This document shows positions 31,676 through 63,561 of a stretch of 64,000 nucleotides of DNA, piece by piece. Source of the DNA: Leptobrachium leishanense (Eukaryota > Chordata > Amphibia > Anura > Megophryidae); NCBI GenBank assembly GCA_009667805.1, contig CM019075.1, forward strand, positions 19,775,615 to 19,839,614, read 5' to 3'. The position numbers and the translations under genes are program-made. The notes beneath the pieces were generated by a model. It was given only the letters and a program-made list of their open reading frames with translations, had not been told where the DNA came from and did not search any database. Each line of letters begins with the position of its first letter. The stretch's first letter is position 1.

Positions 31676-31960
31676 CTTTAAGCCAGACGGTGCCCAGGGA
31701 GTCACAGGGGGAACTGGTGCTGAAGACAGGACAGAAGTGACACCAAGGTGTCAGTTGGTCAGAGGCATCTCTTACACAGCCCTTTGTGCACGGTGCAAGG
31801 TTTGAATGACAGAGTTAGCTCTCTCTCAGTCTGAGTAAGTGTGAGTAACTCAGTCTCCCCCCTCCTACCCTCACCCTCCTCTCCTCCTGCACACACACAG
31901 CACTGCCTGGGACACAGACTCCAACCAGGGATCCCTGCTTAGTGTTTACACTCTACATTC
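31676..31960 (-). promoter_or_regulatory. probable THBS3 5' UTR / proximal promoter
   Basis: This is sequence directly upstream of the THBS3 ATG on the minus strand. I see no TATA box. It has a purine-rich run on the minus strand (complement of 31857-31890, CCCCCCTCCTACCCTCACCC and following) and an AP-1-like TGAGTAA near 31843. No transcription start can be fixed from sequence alone. Confidence 0.4.
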
Positions 31961-32405
31961 TTTGTGTGAATGGAGGTTTAACCCTACGTCCGCCATGAGG
32001 CTGCCAAGACGGGCTCTGGATGCCAAGTGACGTCGCGAACACACGGATCTTGGCACTGTGCTACCGTGGGACCGGTCCCAAGTGAGGCCACGGTATCATA
32101 ATATCGGAATTTTTAACTGGATACATTTACGGATACATTTTCTTTCACTGGTTTTTAAGGACATCTTGAGGTATCGATGACAATGTTGGGGCAAGCATGG
32201 GGCTTGTCGCTCCCTCGTAGGGTCCACCGTCAGCAACTTCTAGAGGTTCACGTAGGGGTCAGTCTGTCTGGAACGAATACCCTGGAACTCCTCTGGCATC
32301 AGGTTTAACATGGGAAATCATGCCACCCAGCAGGGTATCTGTGCCACTGCACACAAGCTGTCAGCTGGACTATAGTCCAAAACAGAACCGTTTTATCATC
32401 TAGAC
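31961..32405. other. THBS3 upstream region, no feature seen
   Basis: No repeat end or ORF. Two AP-1/ETS-like words are not clustered enough to call. Confidence 0.4.
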
Positions 32406-32589
32406 CAGTGGTTCCCAACCGCGGTCCTCAAGTACCCCCAACAGGTCAGGTTTGCAGGATATGTGAAGCACAGCACAGGTGATATGATTTGCTGCTCAGT
32501 GATTGCAGGATTCAGTCTGTATTTCCCCAAGGTGATCCTTAAATCCTGGCCTGTTGGGGGTACTTGAGGACCACGGTTGGGAACGACTG
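32406..32589. mobile_element. hAT MITE with CAGTGGTTCCCAACC ends
   Basis: CAGTGGTTCCCAACCGCGGTCC and inverted partner GGACCACGGTTGGGAACGACTG. Flanks ATCTAGAC (32398-32405) and ATCTAGAT (32590-32597) match 7 of 8. These termini are widespread among vertebrate hAT families. Confidence 0.88.
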
Positions 32590-32640
32590 ATCTAGATCAA
32601 GGAAGAACATCCAAAACTACACATGAATATGAGAACCTCA

Positions 32641-32888
32641 TAGGGTTGCCTGATCGGCCATGTTTTTCTGGACACTTAGAGGGAAACTGGGGGAAAAAGT
32701 GCTGCCCTGCAATGCGTATAATTCATATACCGCAGGAGGGAAATCAAGGCAGGACACCTGGGATTCCTTGGGGTTTCTTACCTGCAGCGTATGGATTCTA
32801 CATGCCATGGGGTGGCATTTGATGCGATGCCCACCAGCATGAATATATTATTGGTGTCCAGGAAACCATGGCCGATCAGGCAGCTCTA
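32641..32888. repeat. hAT-like MITE with TAGGGTTGCC ends, copy 1
   Basis: TAGGGTTGCCTGATCGGCCATG and, inverted, TAGAGCTGCCTGATCGGCCATG. Flanks GAACCTCA and GACCATCA match 6 of 8. The interior matches copy 2 at 34809-35071 along its length (CATGAATA, GGGATTCCTT, TACCTG.AGCGTATGGATT). Confidence 0.75.
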
Positions 32889-33690: not shown

Positions 33691-33942
33691 AACAATGGCG
33701 TTGGCCCAGAAGCTCACACAGATGTGTATGACTCGCCGTATGTCTTCAGAGACCATTTTTTTGGGATGTACAATACCCTCCCCCCCCCCCACCAAACTAG
33801 AAAAGAAACGAAACACAGGGGTTATTCTTTGAATCTAGGGGGGGAACTAATGTGGGAATCTCAGATTTTTCATGTAAAGAAACAGAGCTGGAAAAATAAA
33901 TGTGCAAAAACAAAATGCAAAAATTCCTTCGTTCACGGTTTA

Positions 33943-34332
33943 GGCTAGGATCAGACGAACGCAGTGCGAACGCGCGTGCAGCCGCACTTTATCACGGCCA
34001 TAGTAGCAGCAAATGACGGCCAATAGACGCGCAACGCAAGCGGCAAACGAACGCATTTTTTCGAGAACGTGATACCGCTACTACTGACGTACAGAGTGCG
34101 CTGCGTCGGCATAGCGGCGTGTTTGCGTGATTGGGAGACGTCAGACGCTGCTAATGTCCGGCCAACATAACGTCCAGACGCAAAAAGTGTTTTATTGATG
34201 ATCCGTACAAAATCACGGATGAAAATGCGCATCGTATGACCGCTATCGCGTATTCCGTGAAAAAATACGTCCATTCATTCGAACGCACTTTTTCACGGAC
34301 AACGCAAAAAATGCGTTCGTCTGACCCTAGCC
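33943..34332. mobile_element. Harbinger-like MITE, GGCTAGGGTCAGA family, copy 2
   Basis: Ends GGCTAGGATCAGACGAACGC and GCGTTCGTCTGACCCTAGCC with TTA duplication (33940-33942, 34333-34335). The interior is the reverse complement of copy 3 at 62812-63223 (AACATAACGTCCAGACGC against GTCTGGACGTTATGTT). Confidence 0.88.
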
Positions 34333-34335
34333 TTA

Positions 34336-35860: not shown

Positions 35861-35879
35861 AATTGTGATCCCGCAGGAA

Positions 35880-36975
35880 ATCGTAAATGTTAAATTATGA
35901 ATTCCCAGGATATCTTTACTACTAAATCATGACACCCCACAATTGCTTTACTTCGAAATCATGATCCCACTGTATACTTTTAAATCATGTCCCCCAACAT
36001 ATCTTTACTTCTATTCTTGATCCCCCAGGATATCTTCTAAATCATGATCCCCAAGATAATCTTTGCATCACAATCATAATCCCCCAGGATATCTTCCTTT
36101 CTAAATCCTAATCCCCCAGGATATCTTCCTTTCTAAATCCTAATCCCCCAGGATATCTTCCTTTCTAAATCCTAATCCCCCAGGATATCTTCCTTTCTAA
36201 ATCCCAATCCCCCAGGATATCTTCCTTTCTAAATCCTAATCCCCCAGGATATCTTCCTTTCTAAATCCTAATCCCCCAGGATATCTTCCTTTCTAAATAC
36301 TAATCCCCCAGGATATCTTCCTTTCTAAATCCTAATCCCCCAGGATATCTTCCTTTCTAAATCATAATCCCCCAGGATATCTTCCTTTCTAAATCCTAAT
36401 CCCCCAGGATATCTTCCTTTCTAAATACTAATCCCCCAGGATATCTTCCTTTCTAAATACTAATCCCCCAGGATATCTTCCTTTCTAAATCCTAATCCCC
36501 CAGGATATCTTCCTTTCTAAATCCTAATCCCCCAGGATATCTTCCTTTCTAAATCCTAATCCCCCAGGATATCTTCCTTTCTAAATCATAATCCCCCGGG
36601 ATATCTTTCTTGCTAAATCATGATCTTCCAGGATATCTTTAGTTTGAAATCATGACACCCCAGGATATCTTTACTTCTAAGTAATTGATCTCCCAACAAT
36701 ATTGTTACTTCTAAATCATGATCCCACAGGATTTTATTACTTCTAAATCATGATCCCACAGGATTTCTTTACTTTGAAATCGTGATCTGTCAGGATATCT
36801 TTACTTCTAAATCATGATCCCCCTAGAATACTTTTTTACTTCATAATCATACAGGATATCTTTATTTCTAAATCTTGTGGGATGTCTTTATTTCTAAATC
36901 ACGATCCTGTGGGTTGTCTTTTATGTCTAAATCATGATCCACCAGGATGTCTTTACTTCCAAATCATGACCTCAG
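35880..36975. repeat. 32-bp minisatellite with homogeneous core
   Basis: The core 36075-36600 has about 16 near-identical 32-bp units (CCCCCAGGATATCTTCCTTT + CTAAATCCTAAT). Variation is almost limited to the base before TAATCCCCC (C, A or T). The flanks 35880-36075 and 36600-36975 are degenerate units (AGGATATCTTTACTTCTAAA, TCATGATC). Units abut with no unique spacers. Confidence 0.95.
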
Positions 36976-38204
36976 AGAGATCCTGTTCTCCATGTCACGT
37001 TCTTTGAGGCATGGTTTTAATACTGATCCCAAGGAAAAATCCTTCCTACTGCAACCATAATTCCCAGGGATACTATTTCTTGTGATCCTCTGTGATTTAT
37101 AGGTTTACTTCTAACTCGTTACTAGGGATGAGCCGAACACCCCTGAGTTCGGTTCGCATTCGAACTCGAATTCGATACAAGTCAATTGGGCTGAAAATTC
37201 AATTTTTAGAGTGCCCTCCAAGAGGGCATATATGCTAGATATTTGCCATAAAAGGTGTATGGGGGTCCGGGTAGTGCCCTGGGGGACAGGAAACAAGGAC
37301 AAAAAGTTTTAAAAAAACGTTTTTAAAGGGACAGTGAGTTTTCCATGAAATAAGGGTTAAAAATAAAAACGAAAAATTCCTTCAAATATCGTGCCTAGGA
37401 GGTCCCCATAACCTGCCTGTGAAGTGGCGGATTTTATAGGATGTATAGAAATATGTAAAAACCAAAAAATGACATTTCAAATGACGGTAAATGCTTTTCC
37501 TTTAATCTATCCATAAACAACTGCTTGGGGCGGCAGTCTGTATGAAAAGAGGAGACATTTTTGGACACGCAGAAAAAGTTTAGTGATTTTTTTGGCTAAA
37601 TTATTGTGAAACTTATGCAGGCTTTGGATGAAAGTAACAATAGGTGCATTAAAATTGGGCCTTTAGCGTCGGCAACAGTGCCGTCACACCGTAACCCCTC
37701 TGAGGATATGAATCTGATACAGGCGTCAGTGGCAGTACAGCCAAATATTGTGCCTTTGGTGCCAGGCCTGCAAGTACTATCATACAGTAACCCCTCTGTG
37801 GTATTGTGGAACAGTGCAGGGGTGGACCATGCGGTCAGGGTCGGTGCTAGACTATTTTGCGCCCTAGGCAAGACCAGCTACTTGCACCCCCCCCCCCAAA
37901 AAAAACAACACAACATGAAACTGCTAAATTTCTTTTTATTTAAGAATAAAATTTGAAAAGCACCAATAGTAAAGGTAAAATAAATATAAATAAACTGTAT
38001 TAAACCATTTTAAATTAACTCTATTAATCAAATTAAAATTAACTGTATTATAAATTAACGGAAAAAAAAAATAAGAGTTGTCACGTAAGTTTCAATTGCA
38101 GACACATCAAAATTTCACTTTGAGTGCCTTATCCTTTGCAAATTTTCATCATGCGTATATATATATATATTTCCCAGGCCAGCTCACATCATGCGTATAT
38201 ATAC
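36976..38204. other. intergenic; partial repeat ends
   Basis: CTAGGGATGAGCCGAACACC (37122) looks like a hAT-type left end, and GGTCGGTGCTAGACTATTTTGC at 37839 like another frog repeat end followed by a C10 run. Partners are not identified. The rest is AT-rich. Confidence 0.35.
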
Positions 38205-38369
38205 GTCCTACACCGTTCACCTGAGTTGGATGTACATACCCTCAAATTAAAGCTGACAGTCTGCAGTTAAAGCACATTGTGTTTGTTTCATTCCAACTCC
38301 ATTGTGGTGGTGTATAGAGCCAAAGATGTTAGAATTGTGTCGATGTCCCAATATTTCTGGACCTGACTG
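38205..38369. mobile_element. detached right end of the Tc1-like family
   Basis: 165 bp from TCCTACACCGTTCACCTGAG to GGACCTGACTG, almost identical to 12577-12739 of the near-complete element and followed by TA. No left end or transposase: a solo inverted-repeat fragment. Confidence 0.9.
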
Positions 38370-38682
38370 TATATTCGAGCATACGTCCAGGAATGTTTGT
38401 AACTAATAGAATGATTTCAAGAATATTTTTAGGTATAAATAATGGACCCAGTGATGTTTTTATTTACAAATATCCTTGGGTTCATGATTTATAACTTTTT
38501 AGAGGTTATTCACTAACCTCCAGATTGGCCCTGAATTGCACCAAACAGTAGAGTGTGCGTTTCGTTTCGATTCGCGATTCGTCTGAAATTCTGTTAATTT
38601 CAGAAGTACTTCCAAATACGAATTATTTCAGACGTATTGCGGTAGAAACGAAACAAATTCATACATACAAGATACCGCGAAG

Positions 38683-39515
38683 GTGCTGGTTCGTGCTCTT
38701 GTCATTTCACGACATGATTACTGCAACTCGCTCCTTATTGGCCTCCCCAACTCCCATATTGTCCCTTTGCAATCTGTAACGAATGTAGGCGCCAGGCTTA
38801 TCTTTCTCACCAAAAGCACCTCGTGTACCTCCCCACTCAGCCAGTCTCTGCATTGGCTTCCTGTTCTTTCCAGGATACAGTTTAAAATACTGATGCTCAC
38901 GTTCAAATCGCTCAATAACTCAACCCATCCCTACATGTCTTCATTACTCCGCAAGCACGTCCCATCTAGACAACTCCGGTCGGCAGGTGATCTCCACCTG
39001 TCATCTGTCTACACCCACACGGCCAACTCTGGCCTCTTCTCACGGGCAGCTCCAGTCCTGTGGAATGACTTGCCTCGTCCTATTAAACTTTACCCTGATC
39101 TTCAGGCCTTCAAGAAATCCCTCAAAACCCATCTCTTCAGATTAGCGTACCACATCACTGATGCAACTCATTCCTCTGCTCACCTACTCACAAAGGATTG
39201 AAGTGGCTTCTATGACCCCACCTTTCCTGAACCACTGGCACGAATGCTCCTGCTGTCCAGTAAAATTCCCCTGGTCTTCCTCAACCCCAATGTCACGTTT
39301 CCCCGTTCCAGCCCTGTCCCCCTGCCCTCTGTATTCTTTATGCCTATGTTTCCTATATGGTTCTGTATGTTGCTTTCCCTGGGTTGCAGCTCAAGGGTTA
39401 AGTGGCTTCTTTATTAGCTCTCCTGTTGGTGATGTGGGCTGATCACCTCCCTTTATATTGCAATGGGCAGCGCTGCGGAATATGCTGGCGCTTTATAAAT
39501 AAAGAATAATAATAA
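38683..39515 (+). pseudogene. L2-like LINE, 3' end of ORF2 with tail
   Basis: The 172-codon frame from 38683 reads LVRALVISRHDYCNSLLIGL, SLHWLPVLSRIQFKILMLTF, SRAAPVLWNDLPRPIKLYPD and [14 protein letters not shown], the C-terminal region of L2 ORF2 after the RT. 3' sequence with GCTGCGGAATATGCTGGCGC and TTTATAAATAAAG, then AATAATAATAAT, is the L2-type tail. 5'-truncated. Confidence 0.88.
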
Positions 39516-40320: not shown

Positions 40321-41719
40321 ACATAACACATCGATTACGAATAGATTAGTTGAAACGAATAGATCGTTATAATGTTTCACACAGCACCACGTCCCTGTCA
40401 ATTGGCCGCGTTGCTGAATCAGCACCACAGGCCAATAGACAGCGAAATACGGTGCCATTTGGTGCAGTTCAACGGCCTTTGGCATCAGCGGAATTGCCCC
40501 ATAGAGATCCATTGAATGATTCTATGGGACAAATCGCTGAACTGCACCAAATATGTTTCAGCGCTGCGGAATATGTTGGCGCTATATAAAGTATAATAAA
40601 ATAAATAATAACTGCAATGTATTCCCTGTCAATTGGTCTCCTGTGTTGTTGAAATCGATTCCGCAGCACCACAGGAGGCCAATTGACAGGGATTTATTAT
40701 TATTCTTTATTTATTTTTTTTGTAAATCCCTTTTTATTGAATTTCAATAAAAGAATATATAACATTTTAGCAGTGTTCAAGAATAATACTGGTCTGTCAG
40801 ATCGCGCAGGATCTGTCGTGCTAGACAATGCATATAGAGCATAAAAGTAATAAAATAAAGTCAATGTATGAAACTGAAGTTTTGTCTATCGTTCCTATTA
40901 TAGAAAAGGAGGGGACATAAAAAGACACAATTCAACTAGGGAGAAGAGATAGGGTAGGAAGTGGGGGAGTGGGAAATCGGTCATGTATCATATGTGGGGT
41001 CGGCTGCTAAGGTGTCCGTGTGTGTAGTGTCGTATAACCATTAACCCCTTAGTGACCGGGCGGTTTTACACGAATCCGTCCGTTCGTGACCGCTGCTGTT
41101 TTTACGTTTCTGCGCTCTTAGTGTTTACGTCAAATTTTCCTCTTACTCGTTTATGTAACCCACACATATTTTACACTGTTTTTCTCGTCACTAAATGGAC
41201 TTTATAAAGATACCATTTTTTTCATCATTTCATATAATTTACTATAAAAAATATTGTGAAATATGACACAAAAATTGAAAAAACACCACTTTTTCGAACT
41301 TTGACCCCCAAAATTTCTTATGTATCAACAACCGTCAAAAAAAATTAATTCCTTAGTAGTTTCTAAATTTAGTACTGAGTTTAGCAATACCCAATGTTTA
41401 CATATTCCTCGCTTTTTTCCTTATTTTATGCAACAATAAGTGCAAGTAGCACTTTGCCATTTCCAAAGAGTTTATTTTCAAAACTAGTGATAGTGACATT
41501 GTAACACTGATATCTGTCACTAATTCCTGAATAACCCTCCACATATACATATTTTTTTAAAGTACACAAATCAAGGTATTAAACTTGGGGTATTTTGACT
41601 CTTTCCATGCAAACCATTTTACCACAAATCTATGCCAAAGTTTGAGAAAAAAAAAAAATTTGGTGATTTTTTTTTTTTTGAACGCAATTTAAGAATACAT
41701 GTACTGTGAACTTTAAGGT

Positions 41720-42950
41720 TTACTGCCAAAAAGCACCCCAAAATATGTTCAGCAACATCTTATGAGTAAATTGATACCACCCATGTATAGGTATGTCGGG
41801 TCATTTGGGGGCTAAAAGGCCTTATTTGGGGGGTGCGCATTTCAGTTTTCCAACTTCGAATTTTCACATTTCGTCATCATGCACCCATGTCCTATTTGGG
41901 ACATTTTTGAAGCCGGCCAAAGTAATTTACCCCCATCAAACCATATATTTTTAGAAAGGGCACACCCTAGGGTGCTTCAAAGAGTTGTATTTTAACACTT
42001 TCCATGCACTAGCTCTATGTCAAACTTTCAGGTAGTCACTTTTTGGGTTATTTTTTCACACACATTGTACTTTAGGCATGAATTGTCAAATCCAGTTATG
42101 GGTTACTGCCAAAAAACACCCCAAAATATGTTCAGCAACATCTTCTGAGTAAATTGATACCACCCATGTATAGGTATGTCGGGTCATTTGGGGGCTAATA
42201 GGCCTTATTTGGGGGGTGCGCATTTCAGTTTTCCAACTTGGAATTTTCACATTTCGTCATCATGCACCCATGTCCTATTTGGGACATTTTTGAAGCCGGC
42301 CAAAGTAATTTCCCCCATCAAACCATATATTTTTAGAAAGGGCACACCCTAGGGTGCTTCAAAGAGTTGTATTTTAACACTTTCCATGCACTAGCTCTAT
42401 GTCAAACTTTCAGGTAGTCACTTTTTGGGTTATTTTTTCACACACATTGTACTTTAGGCATGAATTGTCAAATCCAGTTATGGGTTACTGCCAAAAAACA
42501 CCCCAAAATATGTTCAGCAACATCTTCTGAGTAAATTGATACCACCCATGTATAGGTATGTGGGGTCATTTGGGGGCTAATAGGCCTTATTTGGGGGGTG
42601 CGCATTTCAGTTTTCCAACTTGGAATTTTCACATTTCGTCATCATGCACCCATGTCCTATTTGGGACATTTTTGAAGCCGGCCAAAGTAATTTACCCCCA
42701 TCAAACCATATATTTTTAGAAAGGGCACAGCCTAGGGTGCTTCAAAGAGTTGTATTTTACACTTTCCATGCACTAGCTCTATGTCAAACTTTCAGGTAGT
42801 CACTTTTTGGGTTATTTTTTCACACACATTGTACTTTAGGCATGAATTGTCAAATCCAGTTATGGGTTACTGCCAAAAAACACCCCAAAATATGTTCAGC
42901 AACATCTTCTGAGTAAATTGATACCACCCATATATAGATTTGTTCTGTTG
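41720..42950. repeat. ~380-bp tandem repeat, about 3.2 copies
   Basis: TTACTGCCAAAAAACACCCC starts units at about 41725, 42104, 42485 and 42868; each runs through CATGTATAGGTATGTCGGGT and GGACATTTTTGAAGCCGGCC. Copies are ~97% alike by eye, so expansion was recent. A more diverged ~387-bp repeat (GACTGTGATTTAGGAGACAC at 43209 and 43596) follows. Confidence 0.93.
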
Positions 42951-43603
42951 TTTTTGGGGTGCTACGCCAATCTTTGACATGTGCTTGTCAATTTTCTAAT
43001 TTGACATACAGTATCTTCTTTGCTGATCTTCTTTTTAGGGGCCTTTTTACATACCCCAGTTTTATGAACGTGCATATATTTGGTAAGCTAACACCCCAAA
43101 GTATTGTAAATGGAGTGTTTTTATGCTATGGATGCATCCGTTTGCTCCAAACAAATTGGATACAGTTTGGTGGTCATTTTTCATTTTCACACCCACATCA
43201 GTTTTGGACTGTGATTTAGGAGACACTGTTGTTTGTTACTGCATGAAAACTCTCCAGGTTGTTTTCTGCAAGATCTCCTGAGTACACCCATGCCCCCCAT
43301 GCATAGGTTTGCCAGGATTTTGGGAAGGTTCAAATACAATTTTTATGACTTTGTCATTGGAGTTGAAATTGAGATTATTTCTTCAGCTAGGCCTATCTTT
43401 GGTTTTGGGTCTACCGCATACCCCAGTTTGAATTATTGCCAGAAAATTGTTTATGTTTGTTATGTTGACACCCCAAGGTATTGCATATGGAGTGCTTTGA
43501 TGCCATGGATGCAACGGTTTTAGCCCAAAACATTTGAGAAGGTGTGTGGCGGTAATTTTTCAATTTTCAGATTTTTACGCCCACATTAGATTTGGACTGT
43601 GAT

Positions 43604-44424
43604 TTAGGAGACACTGTTGTTTGTTACTGCATGAAAACTCTCCAGGTTGTTTTCTGCAAGATCTCCTGAGTACACCCATGCCCCCCATGCATAGGTGTGC
43701 AAAGATTTTGGCAAAATACAGCACCAATTGTAGAACATAAAAATGTACGAATAAAATGTAAAAGTCTGGTGCCTGTCAAACTGGGGATGCTCTCTAGGGG
43801 GGCACAGGCTGTTGTCACTGAAGTGCATGAAACGCAAAATGTTTTCATACCTTCTACGTGACATTGATTGGGGGTAAATGGGGGTAGAGCAGATGGGGCT
43901 ACTGCTCCAGTAGGAGCGAATTGAGGGCTTCTTTATGATGCCCTCAGCATAGTAAGTGCCCAGAATTTCAGAAATTCTGGCACATCTAGCGGGGTCCATT
44001 GCTGCCTTGCCAAGTAGGAGTCTGGCTTCGCAGCACAATGCTGATGGGCATACAGATTTGATTGGGCCACGATGTGGCCCAACAAATCATCCCCCATAAA
44101 CACCTGCAAAAACTGTGTGGCGGTAAATCCTGCAACATCAATATTGATGCCAGGATTTGCCGTGAAAGGAGGGATATCTGGCCTCTGGCGATGAGGCACT
44201 ACCCACTCCTCAGCTGGAGCTGTGCGTCTCCTGCTGGCAGGTGGTGACCCAGGATCTGCATCAGAAACATCACTAGATACATCAGCCAGCGTAGATAATG
44301 TATCTAGCGACGTCTCTGAGCAGTTAGCGGGGTCGAAATGAGGGTCTGAGTCTGACGCAGATGCCTCAGATTCTGACGCCAGGATGGCATATGCCTCCTC
44401 GGCGCTGTACACCCTCTCAGACAT
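43604..44424 (-). pseudogene. piggyBac-family transposase (PGBD4-like), N-terminal fragment
   Basis: Starts MSERVYSAEEAYAILASESE at 44424. An acidic N-terminus is followed by the DDE_Tnp_1_7 entry (FMGDDLLGHIVAQSN, EFLKFWALTML). A frameshift near 43960 moves the frame to IIKKPSIRSYWSSSPICSTP and SMSRRRYENILRFMHFSDN, a signature piggyBac segment. Homology ends near 43700, where tandem-repeat DNA takes over. The catalytic Asp residues and C-terminal Cys-rich domain are absent, so it cannot be active. Confidence 0.9.
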
Positions 44425-44867
44425 TATATATAATAGATTATAAAATTTTATAATTATTATATATATATAAGCGGATTGTTGGTTCTTAGAAGAACCGTTG
44501 GGTTTCACAAGAAAATACAAATAAACACCTAAATCTCTCTAAATCCCTCTAAACCTGCCTCAATTCTTCTAAATCTCCCTAAAATCTCTCTAAATCTGCC
44601 TCAATTTTTCTAATCTCACTAAATCTCACTAAAATCTCTAACCTGTCAAATCTGATCTCTCTCTCTCGCTCACCAAAACACAAGTGAGGAGAGGGAGGGA
44701 GAATCACAGAGGTCAGAGCCAATATTTACAAAATATTGACCTGACCTGACAAATTAGAAATTTTATTTAGATTTTTTCTAACTTCTGATTGGATGTTGCT
44801 AGCCTGCCTCTCTGATGAGGCAGGCTAGGAACATCCCACTCAGCCCCAAGATGACCCTGCCCTTAGA

Positions 44868-45184
44868 ACCCTAACCCTACCCCTAACCCTACCCCTACCC
44901 CTAACCCTAACCCTACCCCTAACCCTACCCCTACCCCTAACCCTACCCCTAACCCTAACCCTAACCCTACCCCTAACCTAACCCTAACCCTAACCCTACC
45001 CCTACCCCTAACCCTACCCCTACCCCTAACCCTACCCCTACCCCTAACCCTACCCCTACCCCTAACCTAACCCTAACCCTACCCCAACCCTAACCCTAAC
45101 CCTACCCCTAACCCTAACCCTACCCCTAACCCTACCCCTAACCCTAACCCTACCCCTAACCCTAACCCTAACCCTACCCCTAAA
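44868..45184. repeat. interstitial telomere-like array (CCCTAA / CCCCTA mixed)
   Basis: About 317 bp of CCCTAA and CCCTAC-C units in irregular order, the complement of vertebrate TTAGGG with a TAGGGG variant. It is inside a piggyBac-like element flanked by intact LINE sequence, so it is not a chromosome end. Confidence 0.93.
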
Positions 45185-45261
45185 CGTCAGTTTATTTTTA
45201 TTTATTTTTTTTTTATTTTACTTTTTTTTTCACTTTTTTTTACACTTTTTTTACACTTTTT

Positions 45262-45765: not shown

Positions 45766-45778
45766 CTTAAGGATTTAA

Positions 45779-47792: not shown

Positions 47793-47809
47793 TTATTATT
47801 ATTCTTTAT

Positions 47810-53016: not shown

Positions 53017-53677
53017 GCTTAGATCCCAAACGGATCACTTGCCACTGACAAGACCTCTCACTGTGTCCCTTTTCTGCGCCATCTTCAAAGTTCCAGGGTG
53101 CGGGCACATAAGCAAAGTCAGCGGGGTCTGACGGTCGCCACAGGGTATCCCTGAGTGTGGTTCCATAGTCCCGGGGTAAGAGGCAAGCCAACCCTCTTGT
53201 CCAATGCTCCCAAGGACTCACCGCAGTAGTGTCTGCTAGGCAACAGGCCACCACAGTCCACAGACACAAAACGTTTGCTAGCGGGCACACTGGAATTCCC
53301 CCCCACATCTTTCTGTCTCCAGGGCCCCTCTGCGGACCCAGGACCAGAACACAGCAGTCCAAGTCCCCAGTCTCCCCTTCTGCTGCTGCCCCCCTCCTGA
53401 ACATTTAAAAAGGGCCCAGCCCACGGCAATCCCCACAATCCCAAAAGAGCGCAATTCTTCCTGGGACCAGGAACTTGATTGCCTCTGAGGGTAGTCACCA
53501 ATTCTGCTGGTCTTCTAGGCAGGTAAGAAGAGGTCCCCTCTCTGGCGGCACCTTTGTTCATAGGGGTGGAGTACTGGGGGGGTCTCCATCTTTGTCTGGG
53601 ACAAGGCACACTCTGATGCGAGCACAGCATCCACCTCCAGCAACACTGGGTACAATCGCTCCTCTGCCAAATATAAC
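53017..53677 (-). other. internal region of the coiled-coil-gag element, left of gypsy insertion
   Basis: Continues the outer element's internal sequence; the duplicated ATAAC at 53673-53677 rejoins it to 58348. Frames are open in patches (53118-53735), with repeated Gly, Arg and Pro but no domain that I recognise. Confidence 0.5.
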
Positions 53678-53883
53678 TGTAGTGTTCTGGATAATACGGT
53701 ACGTCTTGGGTTTTCATTAATAGGTTTATTAACAACTAAGCATACAGGTTTCCTATAACAGCAACTGGCTGCGTCACTAGTCAGCCTCAACTGGCAGACA
53801 AAATGGATGACCAACTGTCAACAGCCAACCGCCAAAAGAAACACCCACTTCACCTCATTGGCAGCCAGCACAACTACACCACA
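53678..53883 (-). repeat. 3' LTR of the gypsy-like element
   Basis: 206 bp, TGTAGTGTTCTGG...ACTACACCACA. It is directly preceded, in element orientation, by the purine run AAGAAAAGGGAGGAGG. Confidence 0.93.
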
Positions 53884-54123
53884 CCTCCTCCCTTTTCTTG
53901 AAAGAAAAAACAAAAAAAACACGAAACAAAACAAAACAAAGCAAAAATGTCCAGTACAAGTCTATGTATCTTCCAGACCCTCCTGACTTCCATTCTGTAA
54001 TCTGTGCTTTCGGTTCACATAGTATCTGTGGTTGGAAAAAGCTTTTACTCCTCCGGTGGAAATCCCTCAACGGGTCTGGAGCTTGCCAGCGTTCTGGAGG
54101 ATGCCGGACTCTTTGATTCCGAG

Positions 54124-57100
54124 CTAAACTGACATTTCCAGCCAGATCATGTGAAGTGGAATCTGCTTCACTGAGACGACCACATCTATTTCTTCCCTAG
54201 GAAGGGCACAATCCTCTTCTTCTTGTGAAAATACTTCTCCATTATCATGCCAGACCCCCATCCATATATCCGTGTCTTTTGACTCTGCAGCCTGGTCATT
54301 CAGTTGTTTGTCAGAAACAGATCTGGGCCGTAACTGGGCTGAATGTCTCTTGGTGTGCAGACCATTGGACGTGCTAACCTCATAGGTGAGGAATCCAAAA
54401 ACCTTGGAAATAACCGCCAGAGACCAACGGTTTGGCCCTCTATACATCCGTATCCAGACTGGATCCCCTATATTGTACGTGCGTGAACTTTTTCCATGCT
54501 TCATCTTTTCCTGCTGTTTCTGTACATGACGTTGTTCCAGTGAGATGTCCATTTGACCCTCCGTGTCCGGTTGCAATAAGTCTAACTTTGTCCTGAGTGG
54601 TCTGCCAAACATCAGAACTGCTGGTAGCTGGCCGGTGGTTGGGTGAGTTGTGTTCCTGTACTGCATCAAGAATTGTTGGAGTAGTTAAGGTAAGCTTTTG
54701 CGGTCTGTCACAGTACTCCTTAAAAATCCTTTCAGAGTCTGGACAAATCTTTCAGCTAGACCATTGGTAGCTGGATGATACGGAGCTGTACGGAGATGTT
54801 GAATACCATGATCCTTAATAAAACTTTGAAATTTCTGAGCTAATAACTATGGCCCGTTATCAGATACTAGTATCTTAGGCAATCCGAATGACGCAAACAG
54901 CTTCTCCAGGGCATCAATGGTGGCATCAGTTGTAGTCTGAGGCAGTAATATCACTTCAGGCCACTTGGAATGTGCATCCACCACTACTAAGAACATCTGT
55001 CCATTCACTGGCCCTGCAAAGTCAATACGAATTCTCTCCCATGGGTTAAGAGGCCAAAGCCATGGCTGAACTGCACCTCTAGAATAGCATCTCTGAGCCT
55101 GGGCACATCCTGAACAAGCTGCAACGTAGTTGCTTATATCCTCATCCAAAGTTGGCCACCATACATGACCCCTGGCTTTTTGTTTCATCCGGACTATTCC
55201 TGGATGCCCTTCATGCAAAATTTGTAACGTGGGTTTCTGCAAGGCTGGAGGAACAATTACCCGCTCTCCCCATAGCAAGCATCCCTCTCTAACGGACAGC
55301 TCAAGATTCCTGGAGTAAAAAGGTCGGAGACGTGGAGAGGTTTGAAATGGCCAACCATGTTGTACATGTAGCGCTCACTCCCGGAGGAGCCGCTGAATAA
55401 ACCTCGGGTTAGTCTCTCCGCACTAGGGAATAAATATACACCAGCACTGTTGTGGATTTTATAAATTATATACTTTACTGATCCCAATAAAGTGACACAT
55501 CTAATACAATTTCGGTATAGGAACGACATGATTTTCGTAATGCGGGAAAAAGGAAAGAATTAACCCCCTCAGTTCTGGAGTGTAAGTCCTGTGAGTGTAA
55601 GGTCTCAAAAAGGTGTACGTGTATTGATTTGGGTACCCGGGTACTGTATTCAACTGACCAGTGAATGTGATAAGCAAATCTTCGACTAGTCAAGTTGGGG
55701 CCCTGTAGAATTGAAACAATAATGCAGCGTGCTGGATTTTACTTGGACTTTCGGCCTGCAAGGCCTCTGACCCATCTGTTATACAGTCTGTCCCTCTGTC
55801 TGGTTGAGGATGTCTCTCCGCTGGTCCTCCGGAACCCTGTGCCACCGGATCCGCTCTCTGGACCGTCCGATCTCCGAGTCAAGAACCACGGCCTACCGCC
55901 TGCACTCCCTATGGTTCGTCGCGGTCTCCTTACAGGGGGTCCAACTGGAACGGAAGTTCTTGTGTACACCTCCTGGTGATGATGGGTATGCCTCTGCAAG
56001 TTACTGTCCCGATCTCCAGCACCCAAAAGGTAGCGTCTGCGCTCCGGCCTGGTCTCGATCCCGAGCAGTCTCACTTGCGTCCTCTCTCTTTCGTCGCTCC
56101 GCTCACTCTGGCGCTCCTCCACACGAGGCTGCTTACGTCCTTCCTCCCTGTCCCACCCACTTCCTGTCTCCGCCGCAAAGCCTGATGGATATTGTAGTTC
56201 GTTTAAGTCCCGCATTGTCCATATGGCCTTTGTCTCCCTCTGGTGGCTAGAACCCAGCAATACAGTTTTAAACAGCGGTAAAGACATAAGACAAAACTTC
56301 TTGAAGATCAGCATCCTAACTGGTCTCTTGGGCTATTTCAACAGCAGTAAGTGTTTTGCTAAAGTAAATGGAAGGTGGTGAATCTCGAACATAATTGGTG
56401 GAGAGTGGAAGAGGAAGGCGTGAAAAAGCATCTGCATTTGTATGTTTATCATGAGGCCTGTATCGGATTTCATACTGATAAGCCCCCAGCAGTAAAGCAT
56501 ACCTTTGAAGACGAGCGGCGGTGGTCTGAGAAATACTCTTTGTAGGATTGAATATTGCCAATAGCAGCTTATGATCGGTCAACAGCGTAAAAGAACGGCC
56601 ATAAATCAGTGCCCAGATTATCGCTAAAGCCTCCTTGTCAATTTGTGAATAATTGGGCTCAGCTGGGGTGCGAGAGCGGGAAGCAAAACCTACAGATCGA
56701 TCTGTACCATCAGGCATGGAATGGAACAGCACAGCCCCCAGCCCATAAGGAGAAGCATCACAGGTGATACTCAGTGGTTTAGACAAATCATAGTGAACCA
56801 AGACTCTGGAGCTGCGTATTAGTTCCTTTGAAGCTTTAAAAGCAGCCGAGCAGGACTCTGTCCATTTCCATTTTTGTTGTCTTTCCAAAAGCCTATGCAG
56901 CGGAAACAAGTTATGGGCTAAATTGGGCAAAAATTTATTGTAATAGCTCAGCAGCCCTAAATATGAGCGTAGCTGAGTTACATTCCTTGGTATGGGCGCC
57001 TCTATCAATGCTTTCACTTTCTCATCAGTGGTGTGAAGTCCAGTTTTATCAATAACGTGACCACAAAATTCCAGGTGATCTTTCAAGAACTCACATTTGT

Positions 57101-58101
57101 TTATATTAACATTGAGTCCATTATCCATTAGTATCTGGAGCACATCTTATACATTCTGCCGGTGCTCCCTCTCCGTTCGGCCAGTGATCAGCATGTCATC
57201 CAGCAGAGATTGTGTCCCCGGCACTCCAGCAAGCAATTCATCCATTGTACGCTGCCAAATTGCTGGTGCTATCCCAAATACCATTCTGTTATACTGGAAC
57301 AGCCCCTTATGAGTATTGATGGTGAGGTAAGGCCTGGATTCTGGACGCACTGGTAACTGCAGGTATGCATGTTTGAGATCCAGCTTGGTGAACTGCTGTC
57401 CCCCGGCCAAAGTCGCAAAAATGTCCTCAATCTTTGGAAGTGGATATTTATCCACAGCAAGTTGAGAATTAACGGCCATACGGAAATCCCCACATATCCC
57501 AATGTCTCCATTCTTTTTACGCACAGGCACAATCGGGGAGGCCCATTCACTGCAGCGCACTCTGGAAATGATCCCAAGGTTCTCTAGACGCATCAATTCC
57601 GCTTCAACACCAGCTTTAAGTGCAAAAGGTACAGTCCGTGCCTTAAAAAATTTTGGAACCACATTTTCTCTCATATTTAGGGAATATTTGCTGTCCCTTA
57701 ACAGTCCCCAAAGTATCATCAAAAACCGGGGCAAACGTCCTCTGCAAGTCCTGTATCCAAGCTGAAACCGCAGGTAATGTCTGTAAGGCGTGGCAAGCAT
57801 TATACTTTATGTCTGGCATTCCCAATTTATGAATCCATTCTCTTCCAAATAGTGGAGGACCCCCAGACTTCATAATATATAACATTAGGTTCTCCGAGCG
57901 TCCATTTAACTGCACTCTTACATGTACACTGCCCAGAGGGGTTAATACTTCCTTTGAATAAGTCTGTAGACGAACAGCTGTCTTTATCACTGGAACATTT
58001 ACTTTTAATCTCTGCAAGTCTTGCTCAGTAATCACAGAAACGGCAGCTCCCGTGTCCGTCCAGGTCCATAGTGTCTGCATTAAAATCATGCAGAGTGCCA
58101 A
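54124..58101 (-). pseudogene. gypsy-like pol: protease, RT, RNase H, integrase (interrupted)
   Basis: Protease at ~58070-57850 with active-site DTGAAVSVI. RT at 57640-57147: VPFALKAGVEAELMRLENLG, SEWASPIVPVRKKNGDI, YPLPKIEDIFATLAGG, FTKLDLKHAYLQLPV, QYNRMVFGIA and LLDDMLI, where the catalytic motif is LDDM rather than YxDD. RNase H at ~56900-56550 (YDLSKPLSITCDASPYGLGA, YSQIDKEALAIIWAL). Integrase with HHCC-like HEGHPGIVRMKQKARGHVWW and CSGCAQAQ (55240-55090), DFAGPVNGQMFLVVVDAHSK (D) and FASFGLPKILVSDNGP (D) at 54847. Past a TAA just downstream, 54669-54124 contains the C-terminal GDPVWIRMYRG. Frameshifts, stops and a 916-bp insertion between RNase H and integrase make it inactive. Confidence 0.92.
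55368..56283. mobile_element. 916-bp insertion within gypsy pol, LTR-like
   Basis: Removing it rejoins the pol frame between RNase H and integrase. ACAT is present at both edges (55364-55367, 56284-56287). The sequence starts GTAGCGCTCACTCCC and ends CAGCGGTAAAG; with neighbours included, the termini can also be read TGTAGCG...GACA. It contains AATAAACCTC and AATAAATATAC polyadenylation-like words near 55395 and 55430. A solo LTR is the best guess; the class is not certain. Confidence 0.6.
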
Positions 58102-58139
58102 TCAGCGCCATCATGCAGATCCAACATCCCCGTCGCCAC

Positions 58140-58342
58140 TGTAGTGTTCTGGATAATACGAGAAGTCTTGGGTTTTCATTAATAGGTTTATTAATAACTA
58201 AGCATACAGGTTTCCTATAACAGCAACTGACTGCGTCACTAGTCAGCCTCAACTGGCAGACAAAATGGACGACCAACTGTCAACAGCCAACCGCCAAAAA
58301 ACACCCACTTCCCCCATTGGCAGCCAGCACAACTACACCACA
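58140..58342 (-). repeat. 5' LTR of the gypsy-like element
   Basis: 203 bp, nearly identical to 53678-53883 apart from a few substitutions and small indels, indicating a fairly recent insertion. Confidence 0.93.
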
Positions 58343-58347
58343 ATAAC

Positions 58348-59661
58348 AGGGGCAATGCCTTGTCTCCCTGTTGTGCTGCTCTCCTCCGTGGTGGGCACAT
58401 GGGTGCTGGCAGCTTGTGCCAGGGACAACTCATGTTGGAGCTGTCGGCACTGTGCTCGTGTCCCTTCGAGCTCAGCCTGCAGGTGGCTGACAGTGCCCTG
58501 GTGCTCCTGCTCCAATACACCTAGTTGGTGTGTCAGACGGCTCACCTCCATCTCGCTTGCCTTGGTTTGAGCAAGGCTCTCCTTCCGAGCTGCGTCTGCT
58601 TCTAGTAGCTGGTGTTGGCACAGCTGGAGTTGGTTCTGGAGCAGCTGTATTTCCTCCTCCTGCTCCCAGTCCCATGCCTGAATAGTATCCCGGGAGAGCT
58701 GTGTCCGCTCTAATTCCTGCTCCCAGTTCTCCAGGCAAATTTTAAAAGCTGTCATTTCTATGTGTAGAGCAGCTCCAGTTCGCCGTTCAGCCTCCAGCTG
58801 CTTGATCATTACACGGGAGCTGCGCTCCAGCTCCGCTATCTGCGCCTGAGCAACACTGAGCTCCGTGTGTAGGTTGAGGGTAGAGTCCTCACAGGCCTGC
58901 AGCTGGGCCGACAACTGTTATATGGTGGCTGCTTGTTCTTGCACTTTAATGCAGCGACCATCTCTCTCCACCGTGACAGCTCGCAGCTCATTTTGATGGT
59001 TCTGTAAAGTCTCTGTCAGGTCCATTATCTGTGCCCGAGCAGTAAGCAATTCAGCCTGTAACAAGCTGACCAGATCGTCCATGGTCTGTGTTGGCCCATC
59101 TCTCATGAGAGCAACAGCCTGGGTGTCAGTCTCTCTGGTGACCTGATACTGCCCGCTGGAAGATGGCTTACTGTTGTAATCCCCGGGCTGTGACGGAGTT
59201 TTGCTTTGGTCTGCTTTGGCTCGGCCACCTCTCTTTTTATTCCGCTTCCTGCTGGCTGGTGTGGGGAGGCTTCCTCCAGGGGCTTCAGCGACTTGTAGCT
59301 GGGCTGCAGTCTGCAACCTTTTTAAGTCTATTTCGGTGCCCATTCCTCAGCAGCGAGTCCCTTCAGCACGGGCCAAAAGGCAGAGTCCTCATACACATCC
59401 AGGTAGTGCCCCTGGATGCTGCACAATTCTGCATGTCTGGCAGCCTGTGGACTGCCATAATTGTCTCCCCCCCTTAAAGTGGATCCATGCTGGGCCAGGA
59501 CCGCGGAACACATAGCCTGGGGCAAGCTTTTTGTCAGTTTCCCAATCCTCCTCACTCACACATTGCAGCAAGTCCTCGTATTTGCACTCTAGATCGAGTG
59601 CGGCACGCAGCCAGCGCACCAACTGGTCTCCATGGCTCGCAGTGGGCTGAGGCCCCAACAC
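58348..59661 (-). pseudogene. gag-like coiled-coil protein of the non-autonomous LTR element, broken
   Basis: Minus strand, three pieces. 59661-59389 reads QLVRWLRAALDLECKYEDLL; after a frameshift near 59460 a second frame reads YLDVYEDSAFWPVLKGLAAE. From 59343 there is a basic stretch (SRKRNKKRGGRAKAD), then long heptads. A TAA at ~58917 interrupts, and 58914-58348 continues as coiled coil (LQACEDSTLNLHTELSVAQA, LQAELEGTRAQCRQLQHELS). No CCHC zinc knuckle, protease or RT. The reading is cut at 58347 by the gypsy insertion and resumes, in poorer condition, at 53677. Position after the primer-binding site suggests a gag role, but homology to known gag is not evident to me. Confidence 0.65.
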
Positions 59662-59972
59662 TCAGAGTCTCCACAGCTGAAGGTCCTCTGTGATCCTCTG
59701 CTCATAACGAATAAATGAGCTCACCTGCTCCATAGTCCTCTGTAGACTGTTTTCCTTCACCGCAGGCAAAACCACTGCGGTCTCTCTCAGCGGGGACGCA
59801 TCTCCACTCGCTCAGGGTTGCACCACACTTGTGCCTATGACCCTTACTTCATTATCCGTTCCATCCACGGCTCTCCAGCAGGTCCTTCAGAGTGTCCTGC
59901 TTGCAGGCTGCATAGTTGGCCATCTCGGGTGTCTTAGTGTTGGAGAGCCTCTATCCCACCGCTGCCAACCAG

Positions 59973-60775
59973 TGTGACGGAACCGTTCTCTTCTGCCTGT
60001 CCTGACTCTCCAGATACCCCCTTTCCAAGATCAACCCGGTCTCTGAGGTGCTTGGAGCTCAGTGCTTCGAGCAGCCTGATCTGCAGCTACAAACCTGCTG
60101 GGTCTGAACCTCTGCCTTGGAGCCTCTTTGCATTTCCAGAAGGCCGCTCTGTGCCTTCTAAGGTTGAGTGTAGTGTAGCGTAGCTAAAGGAGACACCAGA
60201 CGAGCTGTATATTCCAACAGGATTCTCTCTTTATGGAAGATTTCACCGGATATTTATACAAAATACAGCAATGCACATTGAAACTTCCCACCCACCCCAA
60301 CAGTTCTGATTGGTTGGTTCCAAGACCACTGCAGGTTTCCTTCAGGTCCTCTTCAGTTATAATTTGCATACCAAATAGTGAACATGTACCTAAAGTCTCT
60401 AATTACATTATGTCAGTTAGATATTTACAAATAACATTCTTTAGCCTTTAGCTCACACAACATTTACATAATCTATTGTTCTAACACATCAGATTAAAGA
60501 CAAAAACTATCCCAGATTTCTTGAATCAAACATGCAGCAAGATAAGGGGAAAAGCCTTGTTGCATAAATTACACAGTAGTAAAGCTTGTTTACTGGTGAC
60601 ACAAAAACACCTTTGCCTACAGAAATATAAGTATATTTAAAACTAAAGCTACGCAATTTACACTACTTTTAAACTAAAACCAAGCAATGTAAAATATATT
60701 TAAAATCACACGATATAAATGAACATAAAGTCTCTTGGGGTTTGAAGCATGAAACGCCACGTCTGTTCCTTGACA
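59973..60775 (-). repeat. 5' LTR of the coiled-coil-gag element
   Basis: 803 bp. Ends TGTGACGGAACC and CCTTGACA on the plus strand. Clearly alignable with 49320-50094 and 10279-11037, with scattered substitutions. Confidence 0.92.
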
Positions 60776-62603
60776 CTCATGACGTGCGTCACTTTGGATT
60801 TGGGATGCAGGGTGTTGGTATAATCTGTGTTATGTAAAATGTCATTGTCTGTATCTGCTGTATATTTGAGTAGTTAATTAATATTCTTTGAACAGGCAAA
60901 CAATGCCGCACTGTAATCCTGTTTACCATTACGATTGCCATTGTCCTGTCTGTAAAGGAATGTTACGCCATGTTTATTCCTTCATTTGTCCTAGTTAATT
61001 ATGTCTATCAACTGTTTCTTGGGGAAGTTTTGTGAATGTAAATAACCCAGGTTGACGGTATAAATACGGTTGTGTGAAAAAGTGTTGGCCCCCTTCCTGA
61101 TTTTTTTTAAGTTTTTTTTCACGCTTGACTGATATTTCAATTTGTTTGCTCTGAAACATGAAAGTATGACAAAGATGACACAAGTAAACACAACTTGCAG
61201 TTTTTAAATGAAGGTTTTTATCATCAGATTCTTGATGAAGTTAGCTATAAGTGATATCAGTTTTACAAATCATGATCCCCATAGATAATTTTACCCGATC
61301 GAATCATGATTTCCAGAATTATTATTTTTTATTCTCAAATTTTTACAATCTACAGGGATCATTATGCTCCTTTTAATCCTACTTGCCTCACGCCTTCACC
61401 AACTCAAAAAATGCACACTATACAGGGAAAACCTCTGCAGTATCCTGTAGGCCAGGGATGAGCAACTTTGACCCTCCAGATGTTTTGAAACTTTGTTACC
61501 TAATGAAGTTCAGCTGATATAATGAGTACTAGAGCAGGCCTCAAAATTTCCACTCGCCTGCTCGCATTTGGCGAGTGAAAATTACATGAGGGCGAGTGGG
61601 AATGCAGAGGCATGGCTGGATAGGGGTTAGGTGGGGCAACTAGTGGCGAGTAACTCTTAAGGCCTGGCTAGTAGCTTGGGACTTGAAATTTTGAGGCCTG
61701 TACTAAAGCATTAGGGGAGATCTAGTTCCAAAACATGGGGGGGGGGGGGAAACGCCGATGTTTCTGACCCCCTGCTCTGGGTAGTTGAAGAAATAGGATT
61801 AACACGTTGTAGGTACAAAATAACATATAAAGAATGTAGCGTTACCAAGAGTAAGGGCCAAATCCACACACTTGCATGTTCCCGAGCCTACTCAACACGT
61901 GAGTGTGCTGATTTGGCCCTTATGTTGCTTGGTTGTCTATGGATTTACAATGTGATGTTCTTTTTCTACTCAAAGGTCCATTACTAGAAGAACGCCTGCT
62001 ATTGAAGAGGGCCAGTGAGGGCCTTTATAATCACCCAAAGGCGATCTGAATCCGAGCCGATTGACAGGCTCTATAGAGTGTGAGTATTTTTTCATCTCCT
62101 CCACGTTTATAATATAAATGTACTATTACGTCATGTCCTGCCTTTCTCTTTTTTTTCTTTGAGGATCGATTCAGTTGGATTGAATAGATCTTAGAAAGGT
62201 ATATTTTCATTACACATCTTTTACACTTGTTATCACTACACACTATCTTTTATATGCACTATAATGTGGGTGTGGAAGATGGGGACGACACATGTGGGTG
62301 TTCAAGCAATCGTGTTTGTTTAATCACTTTGTATCCATATATATTTGCGCATGTTCCGTATCTCTTTTTTCTATTGTAGGTACAAAATAAGTTGATGGTT
62401 TCTAGGCGCTAAATTACAGATTTTACCAGAAAGGTTTACTTTACAAGCTACACGGAGGACCTGTTAATTACCTGGGTAGCCGAAAGCATATGCACATGGT
62501 GACCCATGTGAAAATTAGAATTATAAAAGATCTGATGAGAACAGGCAGGAAAGAAAGGTGCAAACACATACTGTACATCCTCAAGCGTAGAAGCTCTAGA
62601 CGT
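60776..62603. other. intergenic, mostly unassigned, with a MITE at 61445-61775
   Basis: 61445-61775 has GATGAGCAACTTTGACCCTC, CAGATGTTTTGAAAC and AGATCTAGTTCCAAAACATGG, a long diverged member of the CAGGGGTCAGCAACC hAT MITE family, with an internal segment GGCGAGTGAAAATTACATG. A G12 run is at 61739-61750. No genes recognised. Confidence 0.45.
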
Positions 62604-63412
62604 CATTAGAGTTGCACTGGTCAGTATGGGTGTTACATTGTGTTATACAGGGTGAGCATACCATGCCAGGGTTTGTATAAGGGATCTTTATAATACAGAG
62701 CTAGTATTAGAGTTGCACTGGTCAGTATGGCTGTTACATGGTGTTATACAGAGGGAGAATTGCATGCCAGGGGTTTGTATAAGTGATCTTTATAATACAA
62801 AGCTACTATTAGGCTAGGGTCAGACTAACACATTTTTCGCATTGTCCGCAAAAAAGTGCGTTCGAACGAATGGACGTATTTTTTCACGGAATATACGATA
62901 GCGGTCAAACGATGCGCATTTTCGTCTGTGATTTTAAACAGATCATCAATAAAACACTTTTTGTGTCTGGACGTTATGTTGGCCGGACATTAGCAGCGTC
63001 TGACATTTCCTAATCACGCACACATCCAGCTAGCAGACGCAGCGCACTCTGTACGTCAGTACAAGTGGTATCACGTTCTCGAAAAAATGCGTTTGTCGCT
63101 TGCGTTCCGAGGCCGCACTTTTGTGCGGCCGAACTCCGTATATTGCCCGTCATTGGCTGCTACTACGGCGGTGATAAAGTGCGGCTACACGCGCGTTCGC
63201 ACTGCATTAGTCTGACCCTAGCCTTAGAGTTGCACTGGTCAGTATGTCTGTTACATGGTGTTATACAGAGGGAGCATGCCATGCCGGGGTTTGTATGTAG
63301 GATCTTTATAATACAGAGCTAGTATTAGAGTTGCACTAGGCAGTATGGCTGGTGTATATGGTGTTATACAGAGGGAGCATGCCATGCCGGGGGTGTAAGT
63401 GATCTTTATGCT
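62604..63412. repeat. ~103-bp tandem repeat upstream of MTX1, split by a MITE
   Basis: Four units begin ATTAGAGTTGCACTGGTCAG at about 62604, 62706, 63225 and 63325; each contains GGTGTTATACAGAGGGAGCA and GATCTTTATAATACAGAGCT. A Harbinger-like MITE (62812-63223) sits at the start of the third unit. The array ends ~75 bp before the GC-rich MTX1 promoter. Confidence 0.88.
62812..63223. mobile_element. Harbinger-like MITE, GGCTAGGGTCAGA family, copy 3
   Basis: GGCTAGGGTCAGACTAACAC and GTCTGACCCTAGCC ends with TTA duplication (62809-62811, 63224-63226). Inverted relative to copy 2 (33943-34332) and clearly the same subfamily. Confidence 0.9.
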
Positions 63413-63484
63413 CATGCTCCGTTCCCATGTGCCCGGGTGATTATAGGATAACATTGACAGTTCTACATGCTGTTGGTTTGTAGG

Positions 63485-63561
63485 GACACGCTGTGACCCG
63501 GAAGTCGTTTGGCGAGGGCGCATCGCGCTTCCGGGTTGACATCTGGGAAAGATGGCGGCGC
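63485..63561 (+). promoter_or_regulatory. MTX1 core promoter with ETS pair and YY1 motif
   Basis: GC- and CpG-rich and TATA-less. CCGGAAGT (63498-63505) and its inverse CTTCCGGG (63528-63535) are ETS/GABPA-type sites about 22 bp apart. AAGATGGCGGC (63549-63559) is a YY1 motif overlapping the start codon. This set is typical of housekeeping and mitochondrial-protein gene promoters. Confidence 0.75.

What the first reader, a model, noticed from the sequence alone, without database searches (positions are those of the whole stretch)
31676..63551. THBS3-MTX1 divergent promoter interval expanded to about 32 kb
The start codons of THBS3 (minus) and MTX1 (plus) face away from each other 31.9 kb apart. 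In mouse and human the two genes are transcribed divergently from a shared region of about 1-1.5 kb. Here gene order and orientation are kept but the gap is filled by LINEs, LTR elements, a piggyBac-like element, MITEs and tandem arrays. Either co-regulation was lost, or it works over distance, or MTX1 alone kept the compact core (ETS pair plus YY1).
Basis: partly seen in the sequence, partly recalled or inferred. Interest (0 to 1): 0.75.

Follow-up and report, generated by a model that had tools for sequence, protein, structure and literature searches.

The report
Transposon-stretched gap between THBS3 and MTX1
Two neighbouring genes that sit back to back with little DNA between them in mammals lie 32 kb apart in this genome because mobile elements have piled up between them; the spacing is real, but nothing here shows a change in how the genes are controlled.

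Summary
The THBS3 start codon (31675, minus) and MTX1 start codon (63552, plus) are 31,876 bp apart with no Ns between. Both genes continue on the same 92-Mb contig: THBS3 to residue 955 of 956, MTX1 to its stop codon, so a mis-join is unlikely.

About 72% of the gap (hand-set boundaries) is assignable repeat: an 11.5-kb Gypsy-type block (LTR K2P 0.054), a 7.1-kb L1-type block holding a piggyBac-like element, MITEs and tandem arrays. By a blastn proxy its repeat share (0.195) is within the range of the gene bodies and flanks (0.147-0.246; THBS3 intron 1 alone 0.057).

MTX1 keeps 142 non-repeat bases with two ETS sites and YY1; THBS3 keeps about 700 bp. Lost co-regulation or control over distance is untested, and start sites are unmapped. 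A weak acceptor-like site at 31719 leaves a far non-coding THBS3 first exon possible. Control gene pairs could not be measured, apart from one (TCP1-MRPL18, on separate contigs), because the search machine was busy.

The parts
31588..31675 (-). THBS3 first coding exon (signal peptide, phase-1 donor)
   Evidence: MEKLPLTRIVLMLYLCFPYFGKAAKNELQ|V, donor score 11.3; joins exon 2 in frame
13..18072 (-). ten further THBS3 coding exons in the window (gene continues to contig position 19759156)
   Evidence: tblastn; splice sites
63552..63632 (+). MTX1 exon 1 (27 codons), donor GT at 63633; gene continues on the contig to a stop codon at C13:19863044
31676..32379 (-). THBS3-proximal stretch without detected repeats; CpG o/e up to 0.95 at 31.9-32.3 kb, one CRE-like and one YY1-like match; acceptor-like site at 31719 and donor-like site at 31875
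   Evidence: promoter role inferred
63410..63551 (+). MTX1-proximal non-repeat stretch with ETS sites (63498 and 63527-63534); the YY1 match begins at 63549 and runs over the start codon
   Evidence: promoter role inferred
49320..60775 (-). Gypsy-type LTR element block with nested insertions; LTRs 49320-50094 and 59973-60775, K2P 0.054; TSD CTCAT at 49315-49319 and 60776-60780; pol pieces on minus, interrupted
50095..53700 (-). LINE nested in the Gypsy block (RT, weak endonuclease piece); 3' end abuts the LTR; upper boundary approximate and inferred
   Evidence: RVT_1 3.2e-34; Exo_endo_phos_2 0.0017, below cut-off
55364..56280 (.). dispersed repeat lying between the RNase H and integrase pieces of the Gypsy block
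40711..47792 (-). L1-type LINE block (RT in frame 46553-47917) containing the piggyBac-like element; 17-bp TSD TTATTATTATTCTTTAT at 40694-40710 and 47793-47809
41045..45774 (-). piggyBac-like element, TTAA at 41041-41044 and 45775-45778, related ends; transposase pieces 43604-44538
   Evidence: Pfam DDE_Tnp_1_7; ends
41713..42937 (+). 382-bp satellite array, 3.2 copies, inside the piggyBac-like element
44867..45183 (+). telomere-like (AACCCT)n array, inside the piggyBac-like element
33942..34333 (+). MITE, flanked by TTA on both sides
62811..63224 (-). second copy of the same MITE, inverted, about 330 bp upstream of MTX1; K2P 0.11 to the first; flanked by TTA; splits a tandem array
62605..63409 (+). 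tandem array of about 100-bp units upstream of MTX1, interrupted by the MITE
35863..36970 (+). 32-bp tandem array
32398..32597 (.). palindromic MITE
38587..39515 (+). L2/CR1-type LINE tail (label recalled; no Pfam hit)
38202..38374 (+). Tc1-type terminal fragment, 99.4% identical to an end of the Tc1-type element in a THBS3 intron (label recalled)

Best explanation
This is the conserved divergent THBS3-MTX1 gene pair whose spacer has grown by ordinary accumulation of transposable elements and tandem repeats, as have the bodies of both genes. Shown: gene identities, order on one contig, distance, nested insertions with target-site duplications, and a repeat share within the range of the surroundings. 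Inferred: each gene is now driven from its own short proximal promoter (an ETS/YY1 housekeeping-type core at MTX1, a separate promoter within about 700 bp of the THBS3 start codon), with no need for shared core promoter DNA. Whether co-regulation existed in the ancestor, or survives through distant enhancers, is not shown.
For: Both genes lie in order on one 92.5-Mb contig, with one 100-N gap in the 164 kb examined; MTX1 reaches a stop codon. The Gypsy block has TSD CTCAT and LTR K2P 0.054; the L1 block has a 17-bp TSD; the piggyBac-like element has TTAA on both sides. 23,089 of 31,876 bp are assigned to repeats by hand-set boundaries. The share of bases matching an unrelated 100 kb of another contig is 0.195 for the gap, 0.171 for the THBS3 body, 0.202 for the MTX1 body, 0.147 and 0.246 for the flanks. 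A solo LTR of the same Gypsy family with TSD ATATC sits in a THBS3 intron. The non-random ETS/ETS/YY1 cluster is confined to the non-repeat DNA next to MTX1. Comparable repeat-driven spreading of conserved neighbours is published for the hoxd cluster in lungfish and axolotl (PMC7875771 passages) and newt (PMC12506533, abstract start in the listing).
Against: The gene bodies are only about 3.6 times (THBS3) and 4.7 times (MTX1) their human length, while the gap is about 24 times the mammalian one (human and mouse figures recalled), and the genome (3.54 Gb) is not giant. So the gap has grown more than the genes, or the mammalian gap is unusually tight. THBS3 intron 1 has a lower repeat share (0.057) than the gap. 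Control divergent pairs in this genome could not be measured; the one answered, TCP1-MRPL18, is split between two contigs and so gives no distance. CpG o/e at the THBS3 side (0.95) is matched by many repeat windows, and the CRE-like and YY1-like patterns there occur 2 and 5 times in the window.
Confidence: 0.82

Rival explanations
1. THBS3 has a non-coding first exon beside MTX1, so the compact shared promoter is intact and the 31.7 kb is a 5' UTR intron.
For: An acceptor-like site lies at 31719, 44 bp upstream of the start codon, score 8.3 against 3.4-12.3 for ten THBS3 acceptors in the window; 66 of 3917 minus-strand AGs score as high. Minus-strand donors exist near MTX1 at 62472 (8.6) and 62662 (6.2).
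Against: An acceptor this good occurs in 6% of 60-bp stretches (128 of 2132). A donor-like site at 31875 (8.8) would give a small local 5' UTR intron instead. No minus-strand donor scoring 5 or more lies in the 142 non-repeat bases next to MTX1; the two candidates are in or beyond the tandem array.
Confidence: 0.08
2. The distance is an assembly mis-join.
For: A 100-N join lies 167 bp after MTX1 exon 1, so exon 1 and exon 2 of MTX1 come from different sequence contigs.
Against: The gap itself has no N. The joined order reproduces the mammalian neighbours in the right orientation, with the MTX1 exons in order beyond the join apart from one short exon not seen separately. Target-site duplications tie together both sides of two blocks that make up 18.5 kb of the 31.9 kb.
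Confidence: 0.04
3. The expansion was selected: it uncouples a tissue-specific matrix gene from a housekeeping promoter.
For: A housekeeping-type core was found at MTX1 only.
Against: The repeat share is within the range of the surroundings; nothing here shows selection. Neutral insertion suffices.
Confidence: 0.05

Closest known systems
Mammalian THBS3-MTX1 divergent pair (human, mouse)
   Same: Same genes, adjacent, head to head (PMC1464143 passages)
hoxd cluster expansion in lungfish, axolotl and newt
   Same: Conserved neighbours driven apart by repeat accumulation (PMC7875771 passages; PMC12506533 abstract start)
   Different: Those genomes are giant, and for lungfish and axolotl an apparent loss of co-regulation is reported; here the genome is 3.54 Gb and no expression data exist
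THBS4-MTX3, the paralogous pair
   Same: Thrombospondin next to metaxin (PMC1464143 passages)
Vertebrate divergently paired genes (TSS distance under 1 kb, PMC12672016 passages)
   Same: Head-to-head orientation kept
   Different: Start-codon distance is 32 times that limit; THBS3 and MTX1 are not named in that paper's main text

Membership tests
Divergently paired genes with a shared promoter | opposite, head-to-head transcription | tested here: met
Divergently paired genes with a shared promoter | inter-start-site distance under 1 kb (PMC12672016) | tested here: inconclusive
   start codons are 31,876 bp apart; start sites not mapped
Divergently paired genes with a shared promoter | co-expression or shared regulatory DNA | not testable with these tools
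   no expression data
THBS3 orthologue | better match to THBS3 than to THBS4 across N-terminal and EGF exons | tested here: met
MTX1 orthologue | better match to MTX1 than to MTX3 in exon 1; gene open to its stop codon | tested here: met
   one short exon (about residues 59-76) not separately found
Gypsy-type LTR retrotransposon | paired LTRs, target duplication, protease-RT-RNase H-integrase order | tested here: met
   element interrupted and nested
piggyBac element | TTAA target site on both sides | tested here: met
piggyBac element | DDE_Tnp_1_7 transposase | tested here: met
   one piece above the Pfam cut-off (1.4e-8), the overlapping piece just below it (2.3e-4); pieces only
piggyBac element | intact catalytic residues | not tested
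   only amino-terminal pieces of the transposase were seen
L1-type LINE | reverse transcriptase plus target-site duplication at a truncated end | tested here: met
   RVT_1 6.5e-24, 17-bp TSD; membership of the L1 clade itself was not tested

The most novel reading that the evidence does not exclude
THBS3 still starts beside MTX1 from one shared promoter and reaches its coding exon through a 31.7-kb 5' UTR intron full of mobile elements, so that a bidirectional promoter survives although its coding exons have been pulled 32 kb apart.
Probability: 0.08. Interest if true: 0.5.

Novelty: new member of a known kind. Interest (0 to 1): 0.24.

Why it matters
If start sites confirm that both genes keep separate promoters, the pair is a natural test of whether the mammalian shared THBS3-MTX1 promoter region is needed, or whether the two genes are neighbours only by history. 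It also shows that a deeply conserved head-to-head pair can tolerate about 30 kb of insertions in a genome of near-human size.

Tried and rejected
Alternative THBS3 coding first exon near MTX1: one poor candidate of 53 within 2 kb. Curated RNA families in the whole window at gathering threshold: 0 matches. A simple LTR reading of the 754-bp repeat failed at first because the left copy is internally shortened; reading both ends to TG...CA gave matching TSDs. Literature on the mouse shared promoter and Thbs3 enhancer: the original papers were not found in the held library with the searches; my statements on them are recalled. Within-genome control pairs: only TCP1-MRPL18 was answered (TCP1-part matches on C4, MRPL18-part matches on C3, so not adjacent here); PPAT-PAICS, HSPD1-HSPE1, DHFR-MSH3, HADHA-HADHB and THBS4 did not complete (DHFR-MSH3 and HADHA-HADHB were asked once each). 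Interstitial telomere with piggyBac and amphibian literature: 1 listing, on snake sex chromosomes, not opened.
Full report
What was checked. The window has MTX1 exon 1 on the plus strand at 63552-63632 and THBS3 exon 1 on the minus strand at 31675-31588. THBS3 exon 1 was tested by enumeration: of 53 minus-strand candidates between 18130 and 63600 (ATG to phase-1 donor, 48-159 nt, donor score 4 or more by a recalled weight matrix), this one combines a hydrophobic core, a donor of score 11.3 and a coding end that continues LQ|VIDLL across the splice, as human THBS3 does. Three candidates have a more hydrophobic core and one an equal one, with donors of 5.3-7.3 and no LQ end. One of the 53 starts within 2 kb of MTX1 (62095, donor 4.5, not signal-like). 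Ten further THBS3 exons follow with splice sites; 8 of the 10 also match the THBS4 piece at E up to 1e-3, each more weakly.

Beyond the window. The window lies in an unnamed 3.54-Gb genome at C13:19775615-19839614. I did not test which vertebrate it is. In 164 kb of C13 read around it, THBS3 runs to residue 955 of 956 at 19759156 and MTX1 to a stop codon at 19863044. One short MTX1 exon (about residues 59-76) was not separately seen. The only N run is the 100 N in MTX1 intron 1. From first to last coding base found, THBS3 is 48 kb and MTX1 24 kb, about 3.6 and 4.7 times the human lengths as I recall them. THBS3 intron 1 alone is 13.5 kb.

What fills the gap. (a) 49320-60775 is a Gypsy-type block: LTRs 49320-50094 and 59973-60775, TSD CTCAT on both sides, LTR K2P 0.054 over 752 sites, with protease, RT, RNase H and integrase pieces on the minus strand. 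A LINE with RT lies from 50095 to about 53.7 kb (upper end inferred), and another dispersed repeat at 55364-56280 lies between the RNase H and integrase pieces. At an assumed 1-3e-9 substitutions per site per year the LTR divergence means roughly 9-27 million years. (b) 40711-47792 is an L1-type block with a 17-bp TSD; a piggyBac-like element with TTAA at both ends sits in it (41045-45774) and itself carries a 382-bp satellite and a telomere-like AACCCT array. (c) Two copies of one MITE, at 33942-34333 and inverted at 62811-63224, differ by K2P 0.11, and both are flanked by TTA. (d) Tandem arrays and smaller repeats follow. By hand-set boundaries 23,089 of 31,876 bp (72%) are assigned; much of the remainder is unassigned rather than shown to be unique.

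Is the gap special? I compared C13 with an unrelated 100 kb of C1 by blastn, as a proxy for dispersed repeats. The share of bases with a match was 0.195 in the gap, 0.171 in the THBS3 body (0.057 in its intron 1), 0.202 in the MTX1 body, 0.147 below THBS3 and 0.246 between MTX1 and the TRIM46 fragment. The gap is therefore within the range of its surroundings. Against this, the gap has grown more than the gene bodies relative to mammals (about 24-fold against 4-5-fold, mammalian figures recalled). I could not measure control divergent pairs: of the control requests only TCP1-MRPL18 was answered, and those genes are on different contigs here, which gives no distance.

Promoters. MTX1 has ETS sites at 63498 (+) and 63527-63534 (-) and a YY1 site at 63549; this is the only strict YY1 match in the window, and no such cluster arose in 2 Mb of simulated sequence. 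The non-repeat DNA upstream of the MTX1 start codon is only 142 bp (63410-63551), bounded by a tandem array that a MITE has entered. On the THBS3 side about 700 bp lack detected repeats (first repeat match at 32398-32406). They hold a CRE-like and a YY1-like match, patterns found 2 and 5 times in the window, and CpG o/e up to 0.95, which many repeat windows equal. A promoter there is inference.

Open possibility. An acceptor-like site at 31719, 44 bp upstream of the THBS3 start codon, scores within the range of real THBS3 acceptors. Sites this good occur in 128 of 2132 60-bp stretches, so it is a weak lead. It could mark a small local 5' UTR intron (donor-like site at 31875) or a far first exon near MTX1. 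Only RNA data can decide.

Literature. [quoted passage not shown] PMC12672016 (passages) defines divergent pairs by under 1 kb between start sites and reports less synchronised expression for its distant group (median 976 bp). PMC7875771 (passages) and PMC12506533 (abstract start only) give precedents for repeat-driven spreading of hoxd neighbours in giant genomes. PMC2812507 (passages) reports that head-to-head order is preferentially retained. PMC6755253 (passages) describes a 13-chromosome toad genome of about 3.5 Gb and 69% repeats, similar in size to this one; I did not test whether the window is from it or a relative. PMC2777200 (passages) gave nothing on repeat depletion at bidirectional promoters. 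The mouse promoter papers are recalled, not read.

Verdict. The distance is real and the cause is ordinary: mobile elements and tandem repeats in a repeat-rich region. The regulatory claims are possibilities without data.

Noticed in passing
window 41045-45774: A TTAA-flanked piggyBac-like element carries both a 382-bp satellite (98% matches between copies) and a 317-bp telomere-like AACCCT array; such an element could spread interstitial telomere repeats. Copy number in the genome not measured.
   Followed up: partly
L008, C13:19881849-19884330 (minus): TRIM46 exons lie beyond the MTX1 end here, whereas human has TRIM46-MUC1-THBS3-MTX1 (region name in PMC8509060 passages); a local rearrangement is suggested.
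   Followed up: partly
C1:71571775 (L014) and the stretches upstream (L015-L023): An MTX3-type exon 1 has no recognisable THBS4 amino-terminal exon on the divergent strand within 90 kb upstream, so the paralogous pair may be even further apart or broken.
   Followed up: partly
window 11098-12741 and 38202-38374: Tc1-type element (label recalled, not tested with Pfam) in a THBS3 intron with a long open frame (11353-12240), and a 99.4% identical end fragment in the gap; recent activity likely.
   Followed up: no
window 10279-11037: Solo LTR of the same Gypsy family in a THBS3 intron, TSD ATATC.
   Followed up: yes
window 33942-34333 and 62811-63224: Two copies of one MITE in opposite orientation near both ends of the gap; they could mediate an inversion of the DNA between them.
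   Followed up: no
C4:204.38 Mb and C3:53.58 Mb (L024-L026, L029, L030): TCP1 and MRPL18 matches, a head-to-head pair in mammals by my recollection, lie on different contigs in this genome.
   Followed up: no
window 63800-63899: A fixed-size 100-N join in MTX1 intron 1, next to a 24-bp tandem array related to those near 6.1 kb and 13.6 kb.
   Followed up: no
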